Source: Ceratobasidium sp. AG-K
Taxonomy: Eukaryota > Basidiomycota > Agaricomycetes > Cantharellales > Ceratobasidiaceae
Assembly (NCBI GenBank): GCA_037039685.1
Contig: JAWNGF010000003.1
Location: 372,001 to 436,000 of the forward strand
Length of the DNA: 64,000 bases
Direction of reading: 5' to 3'
In this document: piece after piece, positions 11,949 through 42,189 of the stretch
Layout: each line of letters opens with the position of its first letter
Numbering within the stretch: the stretch's first letter is position 1
Translations under genes and position numbers: made by a program
Notes under the pieces: generated by a model
Databases searched by the model: none
Seen by the model: the letters and a program-made list of their open reading frames with translations, nothing else
Told to the model about the DNA's origin: nothing

Positions 11949-14077
11949 ATGGGCGCCGTCTTATCCTCGTTTTCTCTTACTTCGGCCTACTATTTCCTCC
12001 TGGGGGTGGCCGGTCTCGTAGTAAGTCGCACGTTAATCGCGAAACTCACGCAACCAACTTTCAAATCATCTAGACCGCATACATGTTTGCCCCTTATCTC
12101 TGGGACCCACACCATCTTCGTCGTGAGGTGATAGGTGGCCCTAGGCTGGCTGCCTTGTCCAATATATGGCTTGCCCATGTTGCAATCAGGGGAGATAGAA
12201 GCAACGCTGTGCACGAGTTACACCAAAAATATGGTAGATCTCAGAATTAACATGATGAAACTAGACTTACATGTCCACTTTCCAGGCAAATTCGTTCGAA
12301 TCGCGCCAAATCATATTAGCGTTGCGGATCCAAAAGCTCTCGATGTAAGTCTAGTTATGACCGTGTCGAAGCTATATTAAGTACACACATGACTTTTATG
12401 AGTAAAGGTCATCTATGCACACGGAAACGGGACCCTCAAATCAGACTTTTATGATGCATTTGTCAGTATTTACCCAGGCCTCTTCAATACGCGTGATCGA
12501 GCTGCACACACCCGTAAGTACTATTAGTTCGAAGACAAGGAAGTACGACCTGATCGAATGTTCTGTTTCACCCGTCTAGGTAAACGTAAACTCGTTTCCA
12601 ACATTTTTAGCCAGCAAAACGTACTCTTGTTTGAACCTCACGTGCGTCGGCACGTTCGCACCTTTTGTGCCCAGTGGGATATGCGGTGTGCCCGGGCAGC
12701 GGCCGGAGAACTCCCAGATGCACACGACCGGAAGCCTTGGTTCGATGTTTTGCCCCGTATGTATGCGAGTCCCTAAACTTCGTATATGCTCACCGCAACT
12801 GGTTAGACTTCAACTTTTTGGCCTTTGACATTATCGGAGATCTCGCATTCGGCGCGCCATTTGGCATGATTGCGGCTCAAAAGGACATTGCGCCAATGTT
12901 GGAGCCCGCCCCTGGGAACGAAAAGGCTGAAATCAAGTATGTGCCCGCCGTCCAGGTACTCAACGATCGGGGCGACTATTCTGCGAGCATGGGAGTACTT
13001 CCAAAGTGGATCCGCCCATTCATGAAGTATGTTCCTTGGTTTTCTCAAGGCAACACGGCCGTCCAGTGTCTTGCGGGAATGGCAATCGCAGCGGTCGAGC
13101 GACGATTGAAGTTTGGAATTCCCGATGAGATACTAGAAGAAGAGGAAGATGTCGACGAAAAGGTCTCCAAGAAGAAGCGAACTGACTTGCTAGAGAAGTT
13201 GATGCAAGGGAAAGATGAGAACGGAGAGCCCATGGGCCGGGACGAGTTGACGGCCGAGGCCTTGACACAACTAATCGCTGGAAGTGACACGACAAGCAAG
13301 TGAGTATTGTCGAGTCACATCCTCGGTCGTACTGATATTTATAACCAGCTCTTCTTGCGCCATCACGTACTACCTGGCGGCTCATCCTGATATCCAACGC
13401 AAGCTCCAAGCTGAACTCGATAGCGTGCTCAAGCCAGTCCAAACCGCTCCTCCACCCACCAGCCAAGCAGGGGCACCCCCATTGCCGCCATCAGACGTAG
13501 CCGCCAAGTTTGCGGACGTCAAGAATTTGCCATATCTCCAGGCATGCATCAACGAGGGTTTGCGGCTGCATAGCACATCAGGCATTGGGCTGCCCCGTGT
13601 GATCCCCCCAGGGTCAAGTCTCGAAGTGTGTGGAGAGACTTTCAACGGGGGTACAATTTTGAGTGTACCCTCGTATACCGTACATCATAGCCAGCAAGTT
13701 TGGGGCGAGGACGCGACAGAGTTCAAGCCCGAGAGGTGGATCGGGCGCGAAGTAGGCAGGGAGTTTAATCCGTTTTCGTTTGGGCCGAGGTAAGGCGAAG
13801 ACAAGATCGAGGGTCGATTAAATCTAACTGGCCGATATAGGGCTTGCGTCGGGCGCAACCTAGCTAGCATGGAGCTCCTGATTATCATCGCATCGGTATT
13901 CCATAGGTACGACTTTGAGCTCTCTTCGCCGGGCCAAAAGGTGAGACACAAGAGTCCTGATCAGCGTGAGATACTAATACTCGAGCACAGCTCCAAACTC
14001 GAGAAGGATTTTTGCGTAAACCCTTGGAGTGCGTGCTCGGAGTCAAGCGGCGAAACGAGAGTTTGCCCCAGAACTAG
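11949..14077 (+). CDS. Cytochrome P450, CYP53-like (benzoate 4-monooxygenase type)
   Basis: This is a membrane-anchored heme monooxygenase. Nine exons fit: 11949-12020, 12074-12233, 12286-12344, 12408-12513, 12580-12756, 12807-13299, 13349-13789, 13841-13940, 13991-14077. They give 1695 nt, or 564 residues. An N-terminal hydrophobic anchor (SAYYFLLGVAGLV) leads into HELHQKYGKFVRIAPNHISVADP. The I-helix oxygen motif is AGSDTTS, the ExxR motif is NEGLRLH, and FKPERW follows. The heme loop FSFGPRACVGRNLA has its cysteine at about residue 505. The segment YAHGNGTLKSDFYDAF and the helix preceding it resemble CYP53 benzoate para-hydroxylases, hence the call; substrate is inferred, not shown. The splice within the heme loop (after GPR) is conserved in the next gene, a tandem paralogue 0.6 kb downstream. 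Confidence 0.92.
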
Positions 14078-14667: not shown

Positions 14668-16711
14668 ATGTCGGTGGTTTTATCCCTTCCCATATCTTAC
14701 TACCTCCTCGGGGGATTTGTTGCTTTCGTGGGTCTCCAGATTATCATTTGTTCAGACAAGGTTCTGACCATGACGTAGATCGGCTGGTTCGTCGTACCAT
14801 TCCTGTACGACCCGTATGGTCTCCGTCGACTTACAATCCCTGGTCCAAAGCTTGCTGCATTCTCGAATGCATGGCTAGGGTATGTCACGGCCAAAGGGTG
14901 CCGAAGTGTATCCGTACACGAGCTACATCAACAATATGGTAAGACTCGACACTCCTTGATTTCATAAACTCACATACCGTATATTCTAGGCAAGATTGTG
15001 CGAATTGCCCCCAACCATGTGAGCATCGCCGACCCCAAGGCCGTCGAGGCAAGTATCAAGTTCCAGCCTCCGTACACGAACTGACCACCCCCAAGATCTT
15101 GTATGCGCACGGAAGCAACGGGTCCCTCAAATCCGACTATTACGACGCATTCGTAAGCATCAACCCCGCCCTGTTCAGCACCCGCGACAAGGTCGCACAT
15201 GCACGTGAGTCTCCCGCCCTCGCCCTCCTCACCCAACTCAATCGACCCAGGTAAACGCAAACTCGTTTCGTACGCCCTCTCGCTCCAAAACGTCCTCACA
15301 TTCGAGTCGCACATTCGCCGTCACATCCGACTCTTTCTCGCCCAATGGGACCTCCGCACAGCCCGTGCGGCCAAGAATGAGATCCAAGGCGCACGAGACG
15401 GCCGGTCGTTCTTCAACGTTCCCAGCCGTAAGTCCTCCTCCTAGCCTAAACCTCGCTAACCCCATGCAGACTTCAACTATCTGGCCTTCGACATCATTGG
15501 CGACCTGGCTTTCGGCAAACCATTCGGGATGATCCCGTCCCAATCGGACATTGTGCCCATGCTCGACCACACCCCCGCCAACCTCGCACTGGGAGACAAG
15601 GCCCGCACGCGTGACGTATCCGCCATCTCGGTCCTCAACGGACGAGGCAACTTTTCCGCAAGCGTCGGCGTCTGGCCCGTCTGGTTCCGTGAATGGATCC
15701 GAGTCGTGCCGTGGTTCGCCAAGGGCAACGACGATGTGCAGAGTTTGGCGGGCATGGCGAGCGCGGCTGTGGATCGGCGGTTGAGGTTTGGCGTGCCCGA
15801 GGAAGAGTTGTTGGACGAGGAAGACGAGAGCGAGGGTGCGAGGACGGATTTGTTGGAGAAGCTTATGCAGGGCAAGGATGAGAATGGGGAGCCGATGGGG
15901 AGGGACGAGTTGACAGCTGAAGCGTTGACGCAGATGATTGCGGGGAGCGACACGACCAGCAAGTGGGTAGTCGGGATGTTATTGAGCTGTGCTGACCGTC
16001 GAGTAGCTCGTCGTGTGCGATTACGTATTACTTGGCGGCCAATCCCGATGTGCAGCGCAAACTCCAGGCCGAGCTCGACGAGGCAATGCCCAAGGTATCC
16101 TCTCCGCCTCCTTCAACCCAAACCGAAACGGCGCCTCTTCCGCCTGCTGCCGCCGTGGCCAAGTGGGCAGACATCAAGTCTCTGCCGTACCTGCAAGCAG
16201 TCATCAACGAGGGTATGCGTCTGCACAGTACACTCGGACTGGGCCTGCCTCGGCTCGTCCCCCGAGGTGGACTCGTGATTCGAGGAGAGCGATTCGAAGA
16301 GGGTACAATATTGAGTGTGCCGTCGTATAGTTTGCACCACAACGAGGAGCTCTGGGGTGAGGACTCTGAATGCTTCAAGCCCGAGCGGTGGTTTGGGCGC
16401 GAGATCGGCAAAGAATTCAACCCATTTTCGTTTGGACCGAGGTGAGTGGTGGCCGGAGTTGGCCGTGCGTGGCTGACGGGCGTAGGTCGTGCGTGGGACG
16501 CAACTTGGCGTCTGTGGAAATGGCGATTATTATTGCGTCGTTGTTCCATCGGTACGAGTTTGTGCTAGACCATCCTGGCCAAAAGGTATGTGGATTGGGG
16601 CATGTCGACTGGGGCTCAACCTGGATCTAGCCGGTTATTCGAGAGGGGTTGTTGCGCAAGCCGATGCAGTGCGTGTTGGGAATCAAGCGTCGGCCGGAGA
16701 GCTTGGATTGA
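14668..16711 (+). CDS. Cytochrome P450, CYP53-like, tandem paralogue
   Basis: Nine exons fit: 14668-14727, 14779-14938, 14990-15048, 15096-15204, 15251-15427, 15470-15962, 16007-16441, 16486-16585, 16631-16711. They give 1674 nt, or 557 residues. Exons 2, 3, 5, 6 and 8 have exactly the lengths of the upstream paralogue (160, 59, 177, 493, 100 nt), so the pair arose by tandem duplication. Motifs are AGSDTTS, NEGMRLH, FKPERW and heme loop FSFGPRSCVGRNLA (cysteine about residue 500). Intron 3 begins GC (AG|gcaagt at 15049), a GC-AG intron at the position where the paralogue uses GT. The linker before the I helix is acidic. The start at 14668 matches the paralogue's anchor length and the TATA position. 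As with its neighbour, aromatic-acid hydroxylation is an inference. Confidence 0.92.
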
Positions 16712-16787: not shown

Positions 16788-19218
16788 ATGAGTCAGCAAG
16801 CGCCAATGAGCGTAAGCGTGGATGAACGACCTGGACTCGACCGTGAAAGCGCAAAGATAAACAGGAATATTCGGGGCGGGATGTTTTATTCTGGCACGAC
16901 CGCGTCGCCCTCGCGTTCGCACTCGATCTCCAACGACCCAGGGCCTCCATGGAACCGCACCCCCCACCCTGTGCTGGCCCCGGGATCCGTCCAGCACCCG
17001 TCTGCCGGTCCACAAGGGCCTCAGTCGCCGGGATACCTAGTGCAGTATGCGAATGGCCACCACTCGATGCCCCATCAACACCACCAGCCACCCCATCAGC
17101 ACCAGATACACCACCAGCATCCCCACCAGCATCCCCACGCCCACCACCAGCACCAGAACTCCCTCCCAGGCTACCACTCGCCAGGCAGCGTGCATGCACA
17201 GACAACAGGCAGATCCACCACCCCCAATGCACCCAACGGTCCCCCCATCCTGCTTCCCGCGCACTGGCAGCAGCAACTTCACCGCGCCGAGGTAAGTCCA
17301 AGCGAGTCGCATTGACCCACGCTTACCGCCTACAGCTCTGCAGACAAGCATCGACCCCGCACCACAGGGCACGTGCCGCAGCCCTCGCTTCCCGCACGTC
17401 GGCCAAGTCTGCCATCCCCATCACCGCCCCATCCTCGGTTGCTGCCCCAAAGCCCATCCCCGCCGACTCGGTCAATGCAACCCACAGCAGGGCTGGCAGC
17501 GTCTCGGAGCGCACAGACACCAGCGAGGATCGTGCATCGTCGGCCGCCAACGGACACCCCTCGGCCAACGCTGCCCCGGTAGTCAATGCGCTCCCCCGGC
17601 CGTCGTCGGAGCGCAAACAGACGAGCACGTGGACGACACTCGACATGGGCGGCATGCGCCTCAAGAACATTGCCCAGTCACTCTTCAAGCTCGACTATCT
17701 CACCACCCTCTACATCAATCACAACCAGCTCACCACCCTCCCCCCTGAAATCTCTCGCCTCCGCCAGCTCATCCTCCTCGACGTTTCCGGTAACCAGCTC
17801 GTCGCGCTTCCCCCCGAGCTCGGCATGCTCTCCTCCCTGCGCGAGCTCCATGCGTTTGACAACCGCCTCGAGACTATTCCCCCGGAACTCGGGACCCCCT
17901 CCACCAACTCGAGATGCTTGGCGTCGAAGGCAACCCGCTCCAAGCCTCGCTCCGCGCTATTCTGCAAAAGGACGGCACTCCAGCTCTCATTGCCTATTTG
18001 CGCGACTCGTGTCCGGTTCCGGCTCCACCCCCAGAGCGACAGTGGCGCGTGCTGTTGCCAGACGAACCCGAGCCAGGCGTCGAGACCTTTAGCGTGCTGT
18101 GCTACAATATCCTCTGCGAAAAGTACGCAACCTCGACTCTGTACGGCTACACCCCGTCCTGGGCCCTCAACTGGTCTTACCGCAAGGAGCTCATCCTAGC
18201 CGAGATTCAAAATTATGACGTGGACTTTATTTGCCTCCAGGTCAGTCCAAATATACTCTACTTGGCATCTGTCTAACCCCCTGCAGGAAGTGGACGTGGC
18301 CCAGTACGAAGACTACTTTTTGAAAAAACTCGCCGAAGCCAACTACCTCGGCGTATTTTCACCCAAGTCTCGCGCCCGAACGATGAGCGAACAGGATCGG
18401 AGGCGTGTCGACGGCTGCGCCATCTTTTTCAAATCCGACAAGTACAATCTCATCGAGCACCACCTCATCGAATTCGCCCAGGCCGCCCACGCCCGTCCCG
18501 CCCTGCGCTCGACTGAAGACTGGTTCAACCGCGTGCAAAACAAGGACCATATCGCCGTCGCCGCCACGCTCGTCAACAAGTCCACCGGCACCCGTCTGAT
18601 CATTGCCAACGCCCATCTCCATTGGGACCCCGAGTTCCGCGACGTCAAGCTCGTCCAGACCGCAATCCTCATGGACAGTCTCAAGGTCATTGCCGACGAT
18701 TTTGCCGACACCGAAGTCGCCGGCGCTAAAAACCGCTACTCGCGCGGGACCCAGATCCCGCTCATCGTGTGTGGCGACTTTAATTCGGCTCCGGATAATA
18801 GTGGAGTGTACGAATTCCTCTCGCGCGGACACGTTCCTGGGTCCCATCCCGATTTCATGGGGCACCAGTATGGGCCGTACACAACCGAGGGACCGCGCCA
18901 TCCGTTTGAGCTCCGGAGCGCGTATGCGGGTATTGGAGAGCTTCCTATGACCAACTTTACCCCCAGCTTTGAAGGCGCGATTGATTATATCTGGTACGGC
19001 TCGGAAAACCTCGAGCCGAGCGCCGTCTTGGGCGAAGTCGATCCCGGGTACATGAGCAAGGTCGTCGGATTTCCCAATGCGCATTTCCCATCCGAGTGAG
19101 TCCCAAGTTCTCGTTTTATTCACAACTAACACCTTGTAGCCATGTCCTCATCACCGCCGAACTCCGCACGCGCCCTCCGAAAGACGCGAAACCCAAGTCG
19201 AGCGCGCGCAAACGCTAG
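16788..19218 (+). CDS. CCR4: CCR4 mRNA deadenylase, with an apparent one-base frameshift
   Basis: This is the catalytic poly(A) nuclease of the CCR4-NOT complex. Exons are 16788-17291, 17336-18240, 18287-19095 and 19140-19218. The amino part is low-complexity (Pro/Gln/His, HPHQHPHAHHQHQ). An LRR block follows (LTTLYINHNQLTTLPPEIS, LILLDVSGNQLVALPPELG). The carboxyl endonuclease/exonuclease/phosphatase domain has FSVLCYNILCEKYAT, FICLQEVD, NAHLHWDP, CGDFNSAPDNS, DYIWYG and SDHVLITAEL, all the expected catalytic positions. The exons sum to 2297 nt, one short of a multiple of three. The frame changes in a C-run at about 17891-17896, inside the LRR; one extra C there restores frame. This is probably a sequencing or assembly error, since both flanks are well conserved. 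Full length would be about 765 residues. Confidence 0.92.
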
Positions 19219-20231: not shown

Positions 20232-21419
20232 ATGTCTGAACTCGCAGCTCCTTGGCCAGTCACCCCACCGCCTCTCCACATCCCATTCTCCAATAATATC
20301 GTCAATGTCAGCGCTATTCACACTGGGGCGCGAATGACCGGGGTCCCCGTTTCTTTATTTTTCGAGCCTCATATCAAAGGCCATGATACACTGGACATTC
20401 CCTCGTACTCGTTCCTCATCGAGCATGCATCCGGGGATCGGCTACTTTTCGATCTGGGCATGTGGAAAAATTGGAAAGACGGAGCCCCAGCAAGTAAGTT
20501 GCATCTCGTCATGTAGTTGGACCACTACTAACATGCTTGTCCTAGTCGTCGAAAAGATCATCGAAGGCGGGTGGCATATGGACGTACCCAAGGACGTCCC
20601 CGATGTCTTGCTCGAACATAACGTGACGCTAGAAAGCATAAACTCTGTCATTTGGTCTCATTGGCACTTTGACCACCTCGGCGATCCTTCGGTGTTTCCT
20701 CCCACCACCAGCCTCACCGTCGACCTGGCTTCAAGTCCAGGATGCTCCCCGGCTACCCGACAAACCCTGATTCACTCTTGGTCGAAAGCGCCTGGGAGGG
20801 TAGGGAGCTTATCGAAGTGCCATTTGACCAAGGTCCTCAGCTCCGTATCGGCCGGTTCCGTGCATTTGATTACTTTGGCGACGGTAGCTTCTACCTGCTC
20901 GACTCTCCCGGCCATGCTGTTGGCCATATATCCGGTCTCGCACGAACTACGCCCGACACCTTTCTGCTGCTGGGAGGGGATATCTGTCATCACGGCGGGG
21001 AGATGCGTCCAACCCAATACTTGCCGCTACCAGAATTTATCCTCCCTAATCCACTTTCGACTGTACCACACGCACCTCCTTGCCCAGGCTCACTTTTTGT
21101 CGACGTTCATCCTGAACATAGCGCTACCAAGCCCTTTTCCCACTCGGTTGCTGGCGATTTTACCGATAACTATGCCGAGGCTCAGAGAAGCATTGAGAAA
21201 CTCGGCGAGGTTGAAGGTCATCCAAATATCTTCACAGTCATCGCCCATGACAGGACGCTGCTCGACGTACTTGACTTTTTCCCAAAGACATTGAACGACT
21301 GGAAGGCTAAGGGGCTGAGGGAACGAGGATTGTGGAAGTTTCTGAAGGACTTTGAGGGAGCCATCGGCAATGTCGGCGTTGCTCCCGATTCTACGGTCCC
21401 TTTGAAGGCTCACCTGTAG
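20232..21419 (+). CDS. Metallo-beta-lactamase-fold hydrolase (lactonase-like), apparent frameshift
   Basis: This is a predicted zinc hydrolase of the metallo-beta-lactamase superfamily, similar in layout to N-acyl-homoserine lactonase-like fungal proteins. Exons are 20232-20493 and 20546-21419. Metal ligands are visible: SHWHFDHLGD (HxHxDH), SPGHAVGHISG, GGDICHHGG and AHDRTL. The two exons sum to 1136 nt, one short of a multiple of three. The frame breaks at about 20720-20722, where TVDLASS replaces the conserved TVGPGFKSRMLPGYP; one extra G gives the conserved reading. Both halves are otherwise intact, so this is an assembly error or a very recent pseudogene. There is no signal peptide. The natural substrate is unknown. 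Confidence 0.82.
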
Positions 21420-21718: not shown

Positions 21719-22722
21719 TCAAGGATACACGCTCGTCAAGCTGTCGTTTCCGTTTCCGCCGATGTTGTAAATCCAGCCGGTGACCTTGCTGCCCGCCTTG
21801 ATGAGCGGGTGGTACTCAATGAGCGCGGTATCGTCGAGAACGGACTCTGTGTAGTTCTATCACAGGGACTTAAGTTTATAGCTCGATCCATTTATTTTTG
21901 CCTGCTTACCTTCGTGCGGATTGGAAGGAATTCCATCTCATTGACCATAAAGGTTCGGGAGAGGTCTCCCTTCTTGTAGAAACGTTTACGGATAGTTTCC
22001 TCGGACTTGTCGGCTGAAGTCAAAGAGAATAAACAACAAATACTGTTGCAACATCCAGGACATACCCATTCCGCAATCGGTATGATGAATTACATGGACT
22101 TCGCTGGTTCCAAGGTACTCTTGACTCATAATGACGGAGCGCAAGGCCTCCTTGCTAAATGGATGAATGAGTCTTTGCGTCGAGGAATATACTCTGCGGG
22201 ATCCACTTACGCTCGTCCACCGGCATTGCGGACAATGTATGAGTTAGTCGATGTGAGGCTGAGTCGATTCAGGATGAGGTCCACGCTAAGCGGTGGGTAA
22301 GTAACTGGTTGGTTCAATCCAATTGAATGCACTAACTTGATACGCGGCTATGATGGTAAAAGACCTTCAGCAAATATCAAGGAAAGGGCGACGCTTTAGA
22401 CTTACGTCCATGCAAGTAACTGCATCCCGATTTTGTCAAAAAAAAAAACAGACAAACAAAAAGGTTATAAGTTCACAATACATCAGCGTAAGAAAGCAGG
22501 TGAGAGAACTAACCGACGGCGACCTGGTCCAAAGCGGCAATGTTAACACAGCTATTCCGGCTATTCACTGTATGATGAGCTTACTTTAGTGCCATCCGCA
22601 CGGGTCGCCAGCGCTACGTTGTCGTCGTGGGCGTTACTGTGGGCTGCCAGGTGGGCTGGGGCGGCTGAGGCAAAGAGGGCTAGGGCGAGCATAGAAGCAA
22701 CGGTGCGCATGTTGAAGAACAT
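21719..22722 (-). CDS. Secreted beta-carbonic anhydrase built from micro-exons
   Basis: This zinc enzyme interconverts CO2 and bicarbonate. Exons in gene order are 22722-22585, 22523-22514 (10 nt), 22419-22406 (14 nt), 22347-22337 (11 nt), 22285-22211, 22154-22066, 22013-21910 and 21856-21719. They total exactly 579 nt, or 192 residues, all with GT-AG introns. The three micro-exons assemble VAVVTCMDPRI, which holds the first zinc cysteine and the Asp-Arg dyad. The next exons give IVRNAGGRA, ALRSVIMSQEYLGTSEV and IHHTDCGM, with the remaining zinc ligands His and Cys. The carboxyl end ESVLDDTALIEYHPLIKAG and VTGWIYNIGG is typical. The amino end (TVASMLALALFASAAPA) is a clear signal peptide, which is unusual for fungal beta-class enzymes; most are cytosolic or mitochondrial. 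It probably acts outside the cell. Confidence 0.85.
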
Positions 22723-27469: not shown

Positions 27470-27800
27470 ATTGCCAGACATGTGGAAGCTACGAGCCGGT
27501 CACCTGCAATCATGTGATCCGAGGGTAGCGTTCGGCATTGTGTTCCGGCGCTTGATGCCCGGCTTCGGAGTTGATCGCCAATTCGAGATATGGTTTGCTT
27601 GTTTTCTATCAACTTTACTTCCAGATACGAATAGATGTTCCATTCAAAATTTACGCGGCCTACAGCGTATGTATCGTTATACACTTTGCCGTATATGCGA
27701 GCAATCCCGCTCGGGCCCGTCCCTCTACTGTGTCCGAATGAAGAATTCAGTAACAAAGTGAAATGTATTCAAGTCCCAATAAGAAAGAAAAAACAACTAA
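27470..27800. repeat. Duplicated 3' flank of subtilase A
   Basis: This stretch downstream of subtilase A resembles 32970-33359 downstream of subtilase B. Shared landmarks include GTGGAAG, CTGCAATCATGTGAT, GGCATTGTGTTCCGG versus CAGCATTGTATCCGC, and the AT-rich bases before the stop. The duplication unit therefore included at least 330 bp beyond the coding region. Confidence 0.7.
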
Positions 27801-30707
27801 TTACGTCCTCTTGACCACAACAGTAGGCGACGTCCAGATCTCGTAATCTCCCTCATTCATAGGGTTACCCGTGACCTTGAGGGCACGGACCAAGATTTTG
27901 TATGAACCGTCGAGAATGGCAGTACCGTTGGCAAATGCAGACACTTGGATCGCATAATAGCCATTATCGTCGGTCGAGTTGGCAGCGCTGTTGCGGGTAA
28001 CGTAGGCTTCATGGTAGAGCAGCCCAAGGGTTTCGACAGTCGCGAAGGTGCCGTCTGGGATCGCTCTACGGTCGGCGAACAGCCTATCCCGGATCGAGCG
28101 CTTCGACGGGATCGAGTAGGGCCCGGCCATGGACTCGGAACGCGAGCGACGAACGTTAGTGGTGACGTTGGTGTTCGTACCGATCAAGTCAACCTGAAAC
28201 AGAGGAGTACCGAATACTAAACGATAGAGCAACACAGGCATATCAGACCCCCTCAAGGTGTAGTTCGCCGAGCCACCCTCGGGAACTGGATCGCCAGCAC
28301 GGTCTGTGATCAGCGGAAGCTTGACGCCAAAATGATTGGCGGTATTATCGAGAACTTTGGCGTCCTTGAGATTGGCAGCGACACCAATATAGGTCGACTG
28401 GAGCGTCGAGTTGTCCGAGCCGACAGCTTTAATGTAGCCAGAGTACACGGGGAAGCTCGACGCATTCAGGCCGGTCGGGGGTTCGAAGGTTACATTGATG
28501 GGAAGGGACCCTCCGGCGGGAACGACGACCCGGTTAGGAACGATCGTCACAGAAGCGGCGTTGGAAACAAGTGGGACAGGGCCAACTTCAGGAACACGTC
28601 AGACGTTGAAGCATTGGGATGCAAACAAGCACTCACGGATCGCCTCGATACCGTTGATGGTATTCGCAGTTCCAGCAGCAACATGGCTGAGAGTATACGT
28701 AACATCATTTTGGCCGCCATTCTTGATCAATAAAGTGTGGACGCCCTTGAAGTACGCGGTATCGTTCAGGAGGAGTTCTGCAGGGAGAAGGCTACCAGTG
28801 TTCTTGATCGCATCGTACACGTTGATCAGACCGGCACCCTGGTGAGCGGCAGTCTCGATGAGCGAGGTGTTGTCTTTAGTCTGCTTGACTGGGACTGCGG
28901 TATTCTCGAAGATCGCACGAGCAGCCATAGCAGTGGCGGCAGTCTTGCCACGGATCTGCAGCAATAGAGCAGACGATCCAGCGACAAAGGGGGCGGCCAT
29001 CGAGGTGCCAGAGAACATAGCGTAAGAGCCAAGAGTGACGGGATAAGTGGACAGAATCAAGCCTCCAGGAGCAACTATGGCAGGCTTCAGGTACATGTCG
29101 TTGGAAGGACCATAGCTGCCGAACGACGACACTAGCCCACCACCAGGAGCAGGAATGGCAGTAAGGGAGTTGGGAAAGGACACGGTGAGGTTCTGGGGAA
29201 TTCCCTGTTGGACGAGGAAGACGCCGTCTTGCTGAGAAATGAGTGTGGCGGTGTAGTTGCCGGTCGTGATAGAGCTGAGAGGTTGGTCGAGGTTGTCGTA
29301 GATCAGGAAGTACCTGGCGCCAAAGGCAGCAGCATTGATTAGCTTGGTCAGGAATGTGCAAGTTCCACGGCGTATGATGACGAGGTGGTTGGAGAGGTCG
29401 GGAGTGGAAGCGGGGAGTGGGTTGCAAGCATCATCGGTGGCGTTGACGTCGGGTGAGGTGGCATAGAGAGGAAGGCCGGCTGGGATAAGAATGGGTTCTA
29501 TTTGGCGGTAATTAATTCTCCGTCCGTTTGATACAGTGGCACTCTGAAGCTGCATCACAGTACTAGTCAAAAATCAGCAGTTTCTCTTGATACACCGTAT
29601 GTTACTCACTTATTGACGCTGCCAACCGAGATGACGTTGAGACCAGTGCCAGGACCAGAAGCGTACCACGAGCCGTACTTGCCATCGTTATCGGCGGCAA
29701 CGGTGACGATGATTCCCTGGTCGGCGATCCTGCTGGCAACGACGCTAGAGACGGCCTCAGTCCACCCGTCTGGACCGCCAAGCGAGAGATTAATGACGTC
29801 GTTTCCATCCTGGTAGGCGCGGAGAAGCGCGTCGATGACGATATCGTCGGAAACGAATCCGTCGCAGCCGAAAACCCTGTAAGCATTGATGCTCGATTCG
29901 TAGGCAACTCCCGAGATGTTGTATGGATTGTTGGGATTAGCACCAACGATGCCGGCAACGTGCGTACCATGCCCGACACATTGATCTAAAGGCTGCGTGA
30001 AGGGTCAGTATGGTCGCAAAATAAAACCAATCATAATTTACATCAGCGTCTGGAATGGGAGGTGATGTGTTGGGCATTCCAGTGTAGGCGTCACCGACAA
30101 AGTCCCAGCCGCCAATGACCTTGTTGCCGGGTCCAAACCCTCCACCGAGAGCGGGATGGGTATAATCGATACCGGTGTCGATAATGCCGACTGTTATTCC
30201 CTTCCCAAAGTAGCCCTCGGCGTGGAGCTTGTCGACACCAGTCATAACATGCGTCGAGGGTGAATCACTGGCAGCCGTAGGATCCGCCATATTGAATGGC
30301 AAGACATCCTTGCTGACAAGCTTGGGTGCCGGGTGCAGGTAGATGGGCGTAATCGACTGCACACCGTTGGCTTGCGCGAGTTTGGGCAGATCCTCTCCGC
30401 TGCCGAGTCTGACAGCGGCGCCAATCAAGAGATGGTCAGAGTACTCCTTGGTCACCTCCCAGCTTGCACCACGACGACGGAGGTCATGATAAAGTTCTTC
30501 ATGAGGAGTCGAGAACCCACGTTTGAGGTGGGAGCCAGAAGCAAGTTCGACAATGTATGACTACATAATGATTAGGTAAGGTCATATCACAATCGAACGA
30601 CACACATTGGCGATAATCGCGGCAGTAGAGACATGTTTAATTGACCTGATATCGACAGTGGCAACAGCAAGCTGAGCGGCAGCGGCCACAACACCGAGGA
30701 AGTGCAT
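27801..30707 (-). CDS. Secreted subtilisin-like serine protease A (S8, PA domain)
   Basis: This is an extracellular endopeptidase. Exons in gene order are 30707-30606 (102), 30560-30042 (519), 29992-29610 (383), 29562-28637 (926) and 28585-27801 (785). They total 2715 nt, or 904 residues. It has a signal peptide (FLGVVAAAAQLAVAT), then an inhibitor-like propeptide with ELASGSHLKRGFS. The triad is Asp in GIIDTGIDYTHP (about 162), His in GHGTHVAG (about 215) and Ser in SGTSMAAPFVAG (about 522). A PA domain inserted between His and Ser holds RRGTCTFLTKLINAAAFG. A fibronectin-like C-terminal region ends VVVKRT. The oxyanion segment reads AADNDG instead of the AAGNDG of its paralogues; the Asn is kept. 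It is somewhat diverged but looks intact. Confidence 0.93.
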
Positions 30708-32969: not shown

Positions 32970-33359
32970 TGTTTTGCCAGACGTGTGGAAGTTGGAAGCA
33001 TGAGCTGGCCAGCTGCAATCATGTGATTTGCGGAGCACACTCAGCATTGTATCCGCGGTGTTTGCCGCCTGATTTGGCAACGGAAACCCAGCTCGGAGCG
33101 CATTTCATTTCATTTTGTGTTCTGCCGGTTCTCTTCCGGGCTCAAGGGAAATTACGTTCGAGATTCATGGAGCCTGGACTGTGGGTGTTACCAATCACAG
33201 ATTTTACCTCTCTATATGCGAGGGGGCAATCTACTGGCGTGCGTCCTTAAACTAGCTGCAAGCCGAATAATCTCCTTAGAGGAACTCACGCACAGCTCAT
33301 ACGAGGAATTCAATAACAAATCGAAATGAATTTAATCCCAATAAAAACAGTACAGCTAA
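32970..33359. repeat. Duplicated 3' flank of subtilase B
   Basis: This is the partner of 27470-27800. The two match over several hundred bases with scattered differences and small gaps, ending at the stop codons of the two protease genes. Confidence 0.7.
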
Positions 33360-36294
33360 TTACGCCCTCTTGACCACAACAGTAGGCGACGTCCAGACCT
33401 CATAATCCTCCTCCTTCTTGGGGTTACCCGTGATCTTGAGGGCACGGACCAAAATCTTGTACGAACCATCGGGAATGGCGGTCCCGTTGGCAAAGGAAGT
33501 TACTTGGATGCTCGAGTAACCATTGTTGTCAGCAGTGTCTGCGAGGCTGTTGCGAGGGAGGTAGTCTTCTTGGTACAGGACACCAAGAGTCTTGACGGCC
33601 GCAAATGTGCCACCAGAGGCCGAGCCACGGTTCGGGAACAGCCAGTCCCAGATCGAGCGCTTCGACAGGGTCGAGTAGGGTCCGGTCACGGGCTCGGAGC
33701 GCTCCTCGACCTCAACCTCGATCGAACGACGAGTGTTGGTAGTGACGTTGGCCTTGGAGTCGATCAGGTCAACCTGGAGACGAGGGGTGCCGGATACTAG
33801 GCGGTAGAGCACTAGGGGCGTGTCAGAGCCAGCCAGGGTGAAGGTCGCCGAACCGCCCTCGGGGACGGGGTTGCCTTCGGCGTCGGTGATCAATGGGAGT
33901 TTGACGCCAAAGTAATCCTCAGTGTTATCAAGAACCTTAGCATCCTTGAGTTTGGCAGCGACACCGAGGTAGGTCGACTGGAGCGTCGAGTTGTCCGAGC
34001 CGACGGCCTTGATGTAGCCAGAGTACACAGGGAAATTTGACGCTGTCAGGCCCGTCGGAGGCTTGATGGACACAATGACAGGAAGGGACCAGCCGGCGGG
34101 AACGGTAACCTTGTTGGGGACGATGGTCACCAAAGCGGCGTTGGAGACGAGCGGAACGGGGCCAACTAGATGGATTGGTTAGTAACTTGATGACAAGCCA
34201 GTGAAATAACACTCACGGTTCGCCTCGATACCAGAAATAGTGTTGGCGGTTCCAGCAGCAACATGACTCAGCGTGTACGTGACGCTCTTCTTGCCACCAT
34301 TCTTGATAAGCAGAGTGTGGACGCCCTTGAAGTACGCGGTATCGTTCAATAAAAGCTCTGCGGGAAGAAGGCTGCCAGTATTCTTTATCGCATCATAGAC
34401 ATTGATCAGACCAGCGCCCTGATGTCCAGCAGTCTCGATAAGTGAGGTGTTTGAGGTGGTCTGCTTAACGGGGATGGCGGTGTTCTCAAAGATTGCGCGG
34501 GCAGCCTTGGATGTTGCGGCAGTCTTGCCGCGAATCTGGAGGAGCAAGGCAGAGGAGCCAGCGACAAAAGGAGTTGCCATCGAGGTACCGGACAAAATGG
34601 CGTAAGGGCCGAGCGGGACAGGATAGGTGGATAGAATCGAGCCTCCGGGAGCGGAAACGGCAGGCTTGAGGTACATGTCGTTGGAAGGACCGTAGGTACT
34701 GAAGGAGGACATCAGTCCGCCACCAGGTACGGGAGAAGTGGAAGGAGAATTGGGGAACGATATAGTGAGGTTCTGGGGAATAGCCTCTTGAACGAGGTAT
34801 CGACCGTCTGCCTGGGTAATTAGTGTGGCGACGTATCCGCCAGTTGCAATGGAGCTGAGGGCTTGCTCGGCATTGTCGTATATCAAAAAGTACTTGGCCC
34901 CTTTTGCGGCGGCGTTGTCCAGCTTTGAGACGAATGTGCATGACCCGCGGCGGATAAGTACGACGTAGTTGGAGAGGTCAGGGGTGGAGGCGGGGAGTGG
35001 GTTGCAGGCATCGTTGGCGATGGTGACGTCGGCAGAAGTGGCATACAGAGGAAGGCCATCGGGAATGGGAAGCGGTTCAAGCCCCTGGTAAGCGATTTTT
35101 CGTCCATTGGAGACGATAGCATTTTGGAGCTGGGAAACAGTGCTGCATGCGAGTCAGCGATTGCTCATGATGCTCCATGCTCTACTTACTTGTCCACACT
35201 GCCAACCGAGATGACGCTGATACCAGTACCTGGGCCGGATGCATACCACGAGCCGTACGCACCATCATTGCCTGCGGCGATGGTTACGATTCTGCCCTGG
35301 TCGGCGATTCTGCTCGCAACGACACCAGAGACGGCCTCGGTCCACCCGTCAGGTCCGCCGAGCGAGAGCGTGATGACGTCGTTGCCATCCTTGTAGGCGC
35401 GGAGAAGCGAGTCGATCAAAATATCATCGGGAACGGAGCCGTCGCAGCCAAAAACGCGGTAGGCGTTGATGCTCGATTCATAGGCAACACCGGAGATGTT
35501 GTAGGGGTTGTTGGGATCGGCACCGATGATACCGGCGACGTGGGTACCGTGCCCATTGCACTGATCAAGCGGCTAAAAAAGTGTCAACATTGCCTCAAAA
35601 TATAACCAGTCGTAATTTCGTACATCATCGTCTGGAGCGGGAGGTGGTGTTCCGGTTCGCCCTGTGTACGCATCGCCGACAAAGTCATAACCGCCAATGA
35701 CCTTGTTGCCCGGCCCGAACTTGCCACCGAGCGCCGGGTGGGTGTAGTCGATACCGGTGTCAATGATGCCAACTGTGATCCCCTTGCCAAAGTAGCCTTC
35801 GGCATGGAGCTTGTCGACGCCGGTCATAACATGCGTGGAGAAGACATCATCGGGAGCAGTAGCATCGACCGCATCTACCGGAAGGATAATCTTGCTGATA
35901 GGCTTGGGAGCCGAGTGCAGGTAGATGGGCGTAATCGACTGCACCCCGGTGGCCTGTGCGAGCTTCAGCAGGTCGGCGTCGCTGCCGAGTTTAACAGCAG
36001 CACCAGTGAGGAGTGCGTCGGAGTACTCCTTGGTCACCGTCCAGATGGCGCCACGGCGGCGGAGGTCATGATAGAGTTCCTCGTGAGGGGTCGAGAATCC
36101 GCGCTTGAGGTGAGAGCCAGCAGAAAGCTCGACGATGTACGACTACGTAATCATAAGAAAGGTCACATGATCATCGAGCGACTGGGACGTACGTTGGCAA
36201 CAATCGGAGCTGTCGAGGCATGCTTGACCGACTTGATGTCGACAGCGGCGGTGGCAAGCTGTGCGACGGCAGCAGCAGCAAAGACGAAACGCAT
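33360..36294 (-). CDS. Secreted subtilisin-like serine protease B (S8, PA domain)
   Basis: Exons in gene order are 36294-36193 (102), 36142-35624 (519), 35572-35190 (383), 35142-34217 (926) and 34165-33360 (806). They total 2736 nt, or 911 residues. The signal peptide is FVFAAAAVAQLATAA. The propeptide carries LKRGFSTPHEELYHDLRRRG. The triad is Asp in GIIDTGIDYTHP, His in NGHGTHVAG and Ser in SGTSMATPFVAG, with AAGNDG for the oxyanion Asn. The PA-domain insert has RRGSCTFVSKLDNAAAKG. The carboxyl region ends SPTVVVKRA. A KR site in STLSKRSIWDWLF lies about 120 residues before the end and is shared with copy C. It is head-to-head with copy C across about 3 kb. It is expected to release peptides outside the cell. 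Confidence 0.95.
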
Positions 36295-39256: not shown

Positions 39257-42189
39257 ATGCGCTTCCTCGTGGCCGCCGCTGCTGTCGCGCAGCTCGCTTC
39301 TGCTGCTGTCGACATCAAGTCCGTCAAGCACTCCTCGACGGCGAAGACTGTTCCTGGGGTATGTGACCGCTTACCAATGATTGAGTAATGGGACTCATGA
39401 TTACGTAGTCGTACATCGTCGAGCTTTCTGCTGGCTCTCACCTCAAGCGCGGGTTCTCGACTCCTCACGAGGAGCTTTACGATGACCTTCGTCGTCGCGG
39501 CGCTAGCTGGACGGTGACCAAGGAGTTCACCGACCCTCTCCTCACTGGCGCTGCGGTCAAGCTCGGTAGCGACGCCGACTTGCTCAAGCTCGCACAGGCC
39601 AACGGTGTCCAGTCGATCACGCCCGTCTACCTCCATGCTCCGCCCAAGTTTGTCAGCCACGAGAGCGTCGCCGCCAACCCTGTCGATGCGGTTGCCCCGA
39701 AGGATGTCTTCTCGACCCACGTCATGACTGGTGTCAACAAACTCCACAACGAGGGCTACTTTGGCAAGGGCATCAAGATTGGTATCATCGACAGTGGTAT
39801 CGACTACAACCATCCTGCTCTCGGCGGCAAGTTTGGACCCGGCAACAAGGTCATTGGCGGCTACGACTTTGTCGGCGACGCCTACACCGGCAACCCCGGA
39901 ACTCCACCCCCCGCCCCGGATAACGATGTACGACAATAGAGTTGGCTTTTAGATTCACGTTTGACTGACTTTGCATCTGCAGCCCCTCGATGAGTGCAAC
40001 GGCCACGGCACCCACGTCGCTGGTATCATTGGCGCCAACCCCAACAACCCATGGAACATTTCGGGTGTCGCCTACGAGGCGGAGATCAACGCCTACCGTG
40101 TTTTCGGCTGCGACGGGTCTGTTCCCGACGATATCCTCATCGACTCGCTGCTCCGCGCCTACAAGGACGGCAACGACGTCATCACGCTCTCGCTCGGTGG
40201 ACCTGATGGGTGGACTGAGGCTGTTTCTGGCGTTGTTGCGAGCAGGATCGCCGACCAAGGAAGGATTGTTACCATCGCTGCCGGAAACGACGGTCAGTAT
40301 GGCTCCTGGTACGCTTCCGGCCCGGGTACTGGTATCAGCGTCATCTCGGTTGGTAGCGTCGACAAGTAAGTCAAACTATTTTTATTCAAGACATCCACTA
40401 ATCACTCTATTAGTACCGTTGTATCTCTCCAAAACGCGACCGTCTCCAATGGTCGCCAAATTCCCTACCAGGCTCTCGAAAACCTGGCCATCCCTGCTGG
40501 CCTCGAGCTTTATGCCACTACAACCGATGTGACCGCCGCCGCCGATGCGTGTGACCCTCTACCCGCTTCCACCCCTGACCTCAGCAACCGTCTGGTCATT
40601 ATTCGTCGTGGAACTTGCACTTTCGCCACTAAAATCGCCAATGCCGCTGCAAAAGGTGCCAAGTATTTCTTGATCTACGACAACAGGGACCAATCCCTCG
40701 GCGCCATCTCGACTGGCGAGTATCCTGGAGCGCTCATCTCGCAGCAAGACGGTATCTTCCTCGTCCAGCAAGGCATCCCCCAGAAGCTCACCGTGTCTTT
40801 CCCTCACTCGCCTTACACCGCTGCCAACCCCAGTGGCGGATTGATGTCGTCGTTCAGCACCTATGGTCCTTCTCATGACATGTACCTCAAGCCCGCTGTC
40901 TCTGCTCCCGGAGGCGCGATCCTGTCGACTTACCCCATCAAGTTGGGTTCGTACGAGATTGCGTCTGGAACCTCGATGGCCACTCCATTTGTCGCTGGCT
41001 CCTCTGCTCTCTTGTTCCAGATCCTCGGCAAGAACGCTGCGACCGCCAAGGCTGCCCGCTCGATCTTCGAGAATACCGCTATCCCTGTCAAGCAGACTAC
41101 CTCCAACTCTTCGCTCATCGAGACTGCTGGTCACCAGGGTGCTGGTCTGATCAACGTGTACGATGCGGTTAAGAACAAGGGCAGCCTACTCCCCGCCGAG
41201 CTCCTCCTAAACGACACCGCGAATTTCAAGGGCGTCCACACTCTGCTCATCAAGAACGGCGGCAAACAGAGCGTCACTTATACCCTGAGCCACGTCGCTG
41301 CTGGAACTGCGAACACCATCAACGGTATCGAGGCAATCCGTGAGTATTTTTTGTGTTCGAATGACTCGATGACTGACATGTCCCTGAAGTTGGCCCTGTC
41401 CCCCTCGTTCCCAACGCCGCTTCCGTCTCGATTGTTCCTAACAAGGTTACCGTTCCCGCTGGCTGGTCCCTTCCCGTCCTCGTGTCGATCAAGCCGCCCT
41501 CTGGTCTCACCGCGTCCAACTTCCCCGTGTATTCTGGTTACATCAAGGCTGTCGGCTCGGACAACTCAACGCTCCAGTCGACCTATCTCGGTGTCGCTGC
41601 CAAGCTCAAGGACGCTCGCATCCTTGACAACACCGATGCGTACTTTGGCGTCAAGCTTCCTCTCGTTACCGACGCCGCGGGCGAGCCCGTTCCCCCCACT
41701 GGCTCGGCGACCTACACCATGACAGGATCCGACACACCCTTGGTGCTCTACCGCACTGTCCAGGGTACCCCACTCATTCGCTTCGACCTGATCGACTCGA
41801 AGACCAACATCACCACCAACACTCGTCGTTCGATCGAGATCGAGGAGCGCTCTGAGCCTGTCAGCGGACCCTACTCGACCCTGTCGAAGCGCTCGATCTG
41901 GGACTGGCTGTTCCCTAACCGTGGCTCGACCTCTGGTGGCTCGTTTGCGGCCGTCAAGACTCTTGGCGTGCTCTACCAGGAGGATTACATTCCCCGCAAC
42001 AGCGCTGCCGCTACCGCCGACGCCAATGGCTACTCTAGCCAACAGATCACTGCCTTTGCGAACGGCACGGCCATTCCCAATGGATCGTACAAGATTCTGG
42101 TTCGGGCGTTGAAGATTACGGGCAACCCAAAAAAGCAGGAGGACTATGAGGTTTGGACCTCGCCTACTGTTGTGGTCAAGAGGGCGTAA
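39257..42189 (+). CDS. Secreted subtilisin-like serine protease C (S8, PA domain)
   Basis: Five exons fit: 39257-39358 (102), 39409-39927 (519), 39983-40365 (383), 40414-41339 (926) and 41390-42189 (800). They total 2730 nt, or 909 residues. The signal peptide is FLVAAAAVAQLASAA. The triad is D162 (GIIDSGIDYNHP), H215 (NGHGTHVAG) and S522 (SGTSMATPFVAG). The PA insert near 395-430 reads RRGTCTFATKIANAAAKG. The fibronectin-like C-terminal region ends SPTVVVKRA. GC content at third positions is high, as in a well expressed gene. It is the plus-strand partner of copy B, and all four internal splice positions are identical in the three copies. A 386-codon open frame on the opposite strand (39936-38776) is a shadow of this gene. 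Confidence 0.96.

What the first reader, a model, noticed from the sequence alone, without database searches (positions are those of the whole stretch)
21719..22722. Secreted beta-carbonic anhydrase whose catalytic motif is assembled from three consecutive micro-exons
Exons of 10, 14 and 11 nt (22523-22514, 22419-22406, 22347-22337) join to encode VAVVTCMDPRI, which carries a zinc cysteine and the Asp-Arg dyad. With them the eight exons sum to exactly 579 nt. All remaining zinc ligands (HHTDC) are present. The protein also has a clear signal peptide, uncommon for fungal beta-class enzymes. Standard gene finders would probably miss it or annotate only pieces. The exon structure is read from sequence; secretion is predicted.
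Basis: partly seen in the sequence, partly recalled or inferred. Interest (0 to 1): 0.8.

Follow-up and report, generated by a model that had tools for sequence, protein, structure and literature searches.

The report
Secreted fungal carbonic anhydrase with micro-exons
A Rhizoctonia-like fungus has an intact gene for a carbonic anhydrase that is probably exported from the cell; the key part of its active site is pieced together from three tiny exons, an arrangement kept in its two sister genes and absent or garbled in many public gene models.

Summary
Confirmed and extended. Eight minus-strand exons (579 nt, introns GT-AG) encode a 192-aa cab-type beta-carbonic anhydrase. Two diverged paralogs in the same genome have exactly 10-, 14- and 11-nt exons at the same phases, although their introns are unalignable and synonymous sites near saturation. 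A chance chain giving C-x-D-x-R occurred in 4 of 1000 shuffles. A signal-less paralog on contig C10 shares the 10- and 14-nt exons but not the 11-nt one. The protein belongs to a Rhizoctonia/Ceratobasidium clade (support 99/97). A signal-like start was found in 21 of 24 family models and 0 of 186 other hits; a conserved N-glycosylation sequon in 21 of 24 is absent at that column in 180 others. Of 24 public models, 13 contain the joined motif and 11 do not. Micro-exons as such are ordinary: the other beta-CA gene here has one too, and putatively secreted fungal carbonic anhydrases are reported. No RNA, secretion or activity data were available. Substrate (CO2 or COS) and role are inferred.

The parts
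22585..22722 (-). Exon 1 (138 nt, 46 codons): predicted signal peptide (MFFNMRTVASMLALALFASA), then a leader ending RADGTK; phase 0 at its end
   Evidence: signal-like start by a home-made rule, also in C1 and C5 and 21 of 24 family models; leader
22514..22523 (-). Micro-exon 2 (10 nt, GTCGCCGTCG)
   Evidence: same length and phase in paralogs C1, C5 and in the signal-less paralog C10
22406..22419 (-). Micro-exon 3 (14 nt), carries the zinc Cys52 and Asp54
   Evidence: same length and phase in C1, C5 and C10
22337..22347 (-). Micro-exon 4 (11 nt), carries Pro-Arg56-Ile
   Evidence: same length in C1 and C5; in C10 this is part of one 77-nt exon
22211..22285 (-). Exon 5 (75 nt), ..RNAGGRA
   Evidence: 75 nt in C1 and C5 as well
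22066..22154 (-). Exon 6 (89 nt), carries HHTDCGM (His107 and Cys110 as zinc ligands)
   Evidence: 89 nt in C1, C5 and C10
21910..22013 (-). Exon 7 (104 nt)
   Evidence: 104 nt in C1 and C5
21719..21856 (-). Exon 8 (138 nt) with stop; begins with the conserved N-glycosylation sequon N148-Y-T
   Evidence: sequon counts

Best explanation
The locus is an intact, constrained gene for a secreted cab-type (clade D) beta-carbonic anhydrase, one of three diverged secreted paralogs in this Ceratobasidiaceae-like genome. The seven short introns (51-94 nt) are presumably recognised by intron definition, so exons of 10, 14 and 11 nt are spliced constitutively and join to form the first core strand and the CMDxR active-site loop. 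The precursor enters the ER through its signal peptide, is probably glycosylated at N148, and is exported as a zinc enzyme that interconverts CO2 and bicarbonate (or hydrolyses COS) at the hyphal surface or in host tissue. The secreted clade probably descends from intracellular clade D enzymes that already had the 10- and 14-nt exons; exon 1 became a signal-peptide exon up to the same phase-0 intron, and one further intron split off the 11-nt exon. Shown: gene structure, its conservation, constraint, family membership. Inferred: transcription, secretion, glycosylation, activity, role, direction of the intron change.
For: Exact exon chain and frame; identical 10/14/11/75/89/104/138 exons and phases in paralogs C1 and C5; dN/dS 0.059 (C3-C1) and 0.069 (C3-C5), no non-synonymous change in 11 micro-exon codons, introns unalignable; second copies intact; chance control 4 of 1000; 13 of 24 public models contain the same joined motif; Pfam, PDB and fold matches; secreted clade 99/97; signal-like start 21 of 24 family models against 0 of 186 others (19 of 210 under the stricter first rule); sequon 21 of 24 against 0 of 180; all six introns of C10 lie at positions shared with this gene.
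Against: No transcript or protein evidence. The signal-peptide call is a home-made hydrophobicity rule, not SignalP. The AlphaFold model is of family member P0001, not of the window protein, and moderate (pLDDT 70.4, pTM 0.67; rmsd 3.2-6.0 over 126-144 residues for the ten best rows). Clade D enzymes can have weak CO2 activity (Trichoderma COSase, PMC8209446), so carbonic anhydrase activity is not assured. Public models may have been made by homology to each other and need not be independent. The tree is rooted at the midpoint for drawing only and warns of long branches, so the order of descent is a guess.
Confidence: 0.78

Rival explanations
1. The same secreted enzyme, but its main reaction is carbonyl sulfide hydrolysis rather than CO2 hydration.
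For: Cab-type/clade D enzymes are the closest structures, among them COS and CS2 hydrolases (3vqj, 3ten); the fungal COSase of Trichoderma harzianum is a clade D enzyme with low CO2 reactivity (PMC8209446).
Against: That enzyme is 163 aa and the words signal and secret- do not occur in the paper's main text; why COS would be hydrolysed outside the cell is unclear; the closest structure by sequence is A. fumigatus CafC, deposited as a carbonic anhydrase.
Confidence: 0.2
2. An effector-like secreted protein whose role in host tissue (pH or bicarbonate change, or zinc binding by the His-containing leader) matters more than bulk CO2 chemistry.
For: Found only in Rhizoctonia/Ceratobasidium among the listed hits, three paralogs, predicted secreted; two Ceratobasidium theobromae homologues (P0013, P0016) are labelled 'putative effector protein' by their depositors; HxH or HxxH in the leader of 21 of 23 sequences that have the anchor; a putatively secreted CA of a mycorrhizal fungus is up-regulated in planta (PMC5293756, passage).
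Against: No expression data here; the window's own leader is one of the 2 of 23 without the His pattern; no paper on such a Rhizoctonia protein was seen in the listings (20 of 107, 3 of 3 and 2 of 2 papers), and the R. solani AG8 genome paper's main text has no 'carbonic anhydrase'.
Confidence: 0.2
3. The micro-exon chain is a chance reading and the real transcript uses other sites, or the locus is a pseudogene.
For: No transcript data are available here.
Against: Conserved exon lengths in three paralogs with unalignable introns, strong purifying selection, correctly joined public homologues, chance control.
Confidence: 0.02

Closest known systems
Rhizoctonia / Ceratobasidium proteins mostly labelled 'Carbonic anhydrase' (P0001-P0022, P0052, P0122)
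   Same: Up to 77% identical over the full length, same signal-like start, CMDPR, HHTDCGM and NYTESVLDD
   Different: Same family (orthology not resolved); 11 of 24 deposited models lack, interrupt or diverge at the micro-exon-encoded motif
Aspergillus fumigatus CafC (6jqc), Glaciozyma antarctica CA (5ztp): cab-type beta-CAs
   Same: Catalytic motifs and fold
   Different: 6jqc is a 164-aa chain with 28 residues before the matched part and no sequon before its ASV motif; these two chains were not themselves run through the signal rule
Trichoderma harzianum THIF08 COS hydrolase (clade D)
   Same: Clade D, zinc Cys-His-Cys set (PMC8209446, passages and Discussion read)
   Different: 163 aa; 'signal' and 'secret-' have no occurrence in its main text
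Sordaria macrospora CAS3 (cab-like beta) and CAS4 (secreted alpha-CA)
   Same: CAS3 is of the same cab-like sub-class; CAS4 shows that fungi can secrete a CA (PMC7179226, one passage)
   Different: CAS3 is cytoplasmic and CAS4 is alpha-class; here the predicted secreted enzyme is beta-class
Putatively secreted carbonic anhydrase RiSP688 of Rhizophagus irregularis, said to occur also in P. indica, T. melanosporum and L. bicolor
   Same: Predicted secreted fungal CA (PMC5293756, passage)
   Different: Class not given in the passage and sequence not seen, so it cannot be compared
Signal-less clade D paralog of the same genome, G000:C10:797474 (L038)
   Same: All six of its introns lie at positions shared with the window gene, including the 10- and 14-nt exons
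   Different: No signal-like start, LPLPPARR start, no 11-nt exon, no sequon
Xlr2 microexon switch of Trichoderma virens (PMC11121469, title and start of abstract seen in listings)
   Same: A microexon in a filamentous fungus
   Different: There inclusion is regulated by glucose; here no alternative splicing is shown

Membership tests
Beta-class carbonic anhydrase (Pfam PF00484) | Profile match above the curated cut-off | tested here: met
   29 bits against 25.7; best stretch 48-117
Beta-class carbonic anhydrase (Pfam PF00484) | Zinc ligands Cys-His-Cys and the Asp-Arg dyad | tested here: met
   Cys52, His107, Cys110, Asp54, Arg56; aligned with 6jqc; nearly invariant in alignment A1 of 30 sequences
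Beta-class carbonic anhydrase (Pfam PF00484) | Beta-CA fold | tested here: met
Beta-class carbonic anhydrase (Pfam PF00484) | CO2 hydration activity | not testable with these tools
   No assay
Clade D / cab-type sub-class | Closer to cab-type, CafC and COS/CS2 hydrolases than to other beta-CAs | tested here: met
Secreted protein | N-terminal signal peptide | tested here: met
   Home-made hydrophobicity and cleavage-site rule; window gene, C1 and C5 pass, C10 does not; 21 of 24 family models, 0 of 186 others. SignalP not available
Secreted protein | Marks of passage through the ER (conserved N-glycosylation sequon) | tested here: met
   21 of 24 models, the 3 lacking it being 128-133 aa; 3 of 3 own secreted paralogs; 0 of 180 others at that column
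Secreted protein | Presence outside the cell | not testable with these tools
   No proteomics
COS hydrolase | COS turnover with weak CO2 turnover | not testable with these tools
   Sequence alone does not tell; see PMC8209446

The most novel reading that the evidence does not exclude
The micro-exons work as a splicing switch. The 10- and 14-nt exons together are 24 nt, so skipping both keeps the frame and removes eight codons with the zinc cysteine and catalytic aspartate, giving a secreted, glycosylated but catalytically dead protein; the conserved lengths (also in the signal-less paralog) would be kept by selection for this on/off choice.
Probability: 0.05. Interest if true: 0.75.

Novelty: new variant of a known kind. 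Interest (0 to 1): 0.42.

Why it matters
In the Sordaria example the cab-like beta-CA is cytoplasmic and the secreted CA is alpha-class (PMC7179226); that this is the general rule in fungi is recalled. A lineage of plant-associated fungi seems to have made its own exported carbonic anhydrase out of an intracellular clade D enzyme, with three diverged copies under purifying selection. Because its active-site motif lies on 10-, 14- and 11-nt exons, 11 of 24 public models do not show it intact, so the family is easily under-described. It is also a traceable case of an intron change and a first-exon change behind a change of cell address.

Tried and rejected
Splicing of exons 2-4 by subsets: of the seven incomplete subsets two (14-nt exon alone, 11-nt exon alone) keep the frame but lose the zinc-cysteine motif; the other five run into stops. 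NCBIfam gave no meaningful family. A search of this genome with P0124, of the signal-less Ceratobasidiaceae sister group, hit only the loci already known; so did one with the divergent secreted form P0019. The alpha-CA family search found none, but its control rang in only 1 of 14 genomes and genes are searched exon by exon, so absence is weak; a review says that basidiomycetous yeasts have only beta-CAs (PMC8122340, passage). Foldseek TM-scores are modest (0.54 to the query). Literature: no secreted Rhizoctonia beta-CA was seen, in listings only of 20 of 103, 20 of 107, 20 of 350, 3 of 3, 2 of 2 and 12 of 36 papers; most were judged by title and abstract start. Passages against exclusiveness of secretion: Rhizophagus RiSP688, A. 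nidulans CA1 spoken of as secreted, Paracoccidioides CA4 presumed secreted, a secreted alpha-CA of A. niger. The CA survey PMC13098186 has no 'Rhizoctonia', 'intron' or 'secret-' in its main text and 'signal peptide' only in a reference (passages). PMC8602583 concerns an insect CA.

Rows dropped: the tree used 12 of 24 family models, the well-formed ones, plus 3 own secreted proteins, C10, 6 sister-group and 18 other proteins; P0130 is a long branch. The sequon and motif counts used all 24; the His count used the 23 of 27 sequences (3 own included) with the RADGTK-like anchor, and its comparison with 184 others counted HxH only (1 of 184). The first signal rule needed the string CMD, so P0005, P0021 and P0122 failed for lack of it; repeated without it, where 2 of 186 others passed on hydrophobicity but lay too near the motif. 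The 210 hits are the listed best 120 of 146 and best 120 of 7844, not all hits. The sequon column rests on a MAFFT alignment.

Full report
What is there. The window is G000:C3:372001-436000 of a 53.6-Mb, 17-contig genome. On the minus strand, 22722-21719, eight exons of 138, 10, 14, 11, 75, 89, 104 and 138 nt sum to 579 nt; all seven introns (51-94 nt) are GT-AG. The protein has 192 aa.

Is it more than chance. With introns of at least 45 nt and micro-exons of 6-20 nt, 15 stop-free chains connect exon 1 to exon 5; one gives C-x-D-x-R. Of 1000 dinucleotide shuffles 4 gave any such chain. The comparative test is far stronger. A search of the genome with the protein found paralogs on C1 and C5 and a more distant one on C10. 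C1 and C5 have micro-exons of exactly 10, 14 and 11 nt with AG and GT borders, and the exon series from exon 2 on (10, 14, 11, 75, 89, 104, 138) and all phases are the same. Introns are 39-57% identical in forced global alignment, which I take as no real similarity (blastn found none between the loci), whereas exons 2-8 are 69-100% identical; dN/dS for exons 2-8 is 0.059 (C3-C1) and 0.069 (C3-C5), with C1-C5 saturated at synonymous sites; the 11 micro-exon codons have 2, 6 and 4 synonymous and no non-synonymous differences in the three pairs. Each secreted paralog has a near-identical second copy, also intact; those of C3 and C1 are identical in protein, that of C5 differs in two residues.

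Public proteins. The first database search listed 22 Rhizoctonia or Ceratobasidium proteins above all others, 53-77% identical. With P0052 and P0122 the family has 24 listed models. In 13 the micro-exon motif is joined as here; in 11 it is missing, interrupted or divergent. In several the break falls at a micro-exon edge: extra residues between VAV and VTCMD or VACMD (P0008, P0009, P0013), between CMD and PRI (P0022), or a lost PRI (P0017). These look like annotation errors, but a real difference cannot be excluded without their DNA; P0122 is divergent rather than interrupted.

Secretion. A simple rule for signal-like starts is passed by 21 of 24 family models and 0 of 186 other listed hits, and by the window, C1 and C5 proteins but not C10 (a stricter first version gave 19 of 210, all in the family). 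Independently, N-[YF]-T-E-S-[VL] is present in 21 of 24 family models (the other three are 128-133 aa long) and in all three own secreted paralogs, while 0 of 180 other proteins have a sequon at that column and 0 of 6 sister-group proteins have the motif. A sequon kept in one clade only is what a glycoprotein of the secretory pathway would show. The leader after the signal carries HxH or HxxH in 21 of 23 sequences, though not in the window gene itself, whose histidines are four apart. Metal binding by the leader is speculation.

Origin. In a tree of 40 proteins the secreted group is one side of a branch (99/97), next to six signal-less Ceratobasidiaceae proteins; the C10 protein lies with ordinary fungal enzymes of this kind (midpoint root, long-branch warning). 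C10 has exons of 96, 10, 14, 77, 89, 98 and 126 nt: all six of its introns sit where the secreted genes have one, and only the split between the 11- and 75-nt exons is missing. The simplest history is that the 10- and 14-nt exons are old, that the 11-nt exon arose by a later intron gain (or C10 lost an intron), and that exon 1 became a signal exon up to a shared phase-0 intron. Whether exon 1 was swapped or changed in place cannot be told.

How ordinary. Micro-exons are known in basidiomycete genes: a study of Phanerochaete P450 genes reports exons down to 6 bp (PMC1184071, passages), and the C7 beta-CA of this genome has an 11-nt exon just before its HTQCG motif. The micro-exons are thus not by themselves evidence of special regulation. 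The 10+14 pair is 24 nt and could be skipped in frame, which is the boldest reading and untested; a regulated microexon is reported in Trichoderma virens (PMC11121469, listing only). Predicted secreted carbonic anhydrases are also reported in other fungi (PMC5293756, passage).

Function. Inferred, not shown: extracellular CO2/bicarbonate interconversion, or COS hydrolysis as in the clade D COSase of Trichoderma harzianum (PMC8209446; passages and Discussion read). In Sordaria the cab-like CAS3 is cytoplasmic and the secreted CA is the alpha-class CAS4 (PMC7179226, one passage); no alpha-CA was detected in this genome, so the secreted beta-CA could fill that place, but the absence is weakly tested.

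Limits. No transcripts, no proteomics, no activity, no other fungal genome DNA. Organism identity is inferred from the closest proteins (Ceratobasidiaceae, Cantharellales).

Noticed in passing
G000:C3:1-243,600 and C3:243,600-487,000 (window lies in the second block): The first 243.6 kb of contig C3 recur directly after themselves: 6 of 8 compared pairs matched at 99.4-100% with offsets of 242.7-243.9 kb (the other two pairs, one outside the blocks and one of adjacent pieces, did not match), with a tandem repeat of about 1,145 bp at the start of both blocks. The C1, C5 and C10 carbonic anhydrase loci also occur twice on one contig in the same orientation. This looks like two nuclear haplotypes laid end to end in the assembly rather than true duplication.
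   Followed up: partly
L040, C7:2097954-2097964: An 11-nt exon (TTGTCATTGCT) just before the HTQCG zinc motif of another beta-CA gene of the same genome.
   Followed up: yes
P0123, P0124, P0125, P0127, P0129, P0170: A second Ceratobasidiaceae clade of beta-CA-like proteins without signal peptide, next to the secreted clade; 2-11 Cys, several with a Cys-rich C-terminal tail; a search with P0124 found no member in this genome.
   Followed up: partly
window 20232-21419 (+): Open frames directly downstream of and convergent to the carbonic anhydrase with an HWHFDH motif like metallo-beta-lactamase-fold hydrolases (motif recalled; Pfam scan of one piece, 20742-21416, gave nothing); DNA relatives lie on C4.
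   Followed up: partly
window 27740-29975, 33303-35554 and 39979-42189: Two neighbouring minus-strand subtilisin-like protease genes (Peptidase_S8), 75% identical in DNA, and a third relative (74%) in opposite orientation.
   Followed up: partly
window 12665-13793 and 15529-16445 (+): Two neighbouring cytochrome P450 genes with closely similar pieces.
   Followed up: no
window 18215-19096 (+): Endonuclease/exonuclease/phosphatase-family gene piece (PF03372), preceded by leucine-rich-repeat-like text, as in CCR4-type deadenylases (recalled).
   Followed up: no
whole genome G000: No alpha-class carbonic anhydrase (PF00194) detected in six frames; control rang in 1 of 14 genomes.
   Followed up: partly
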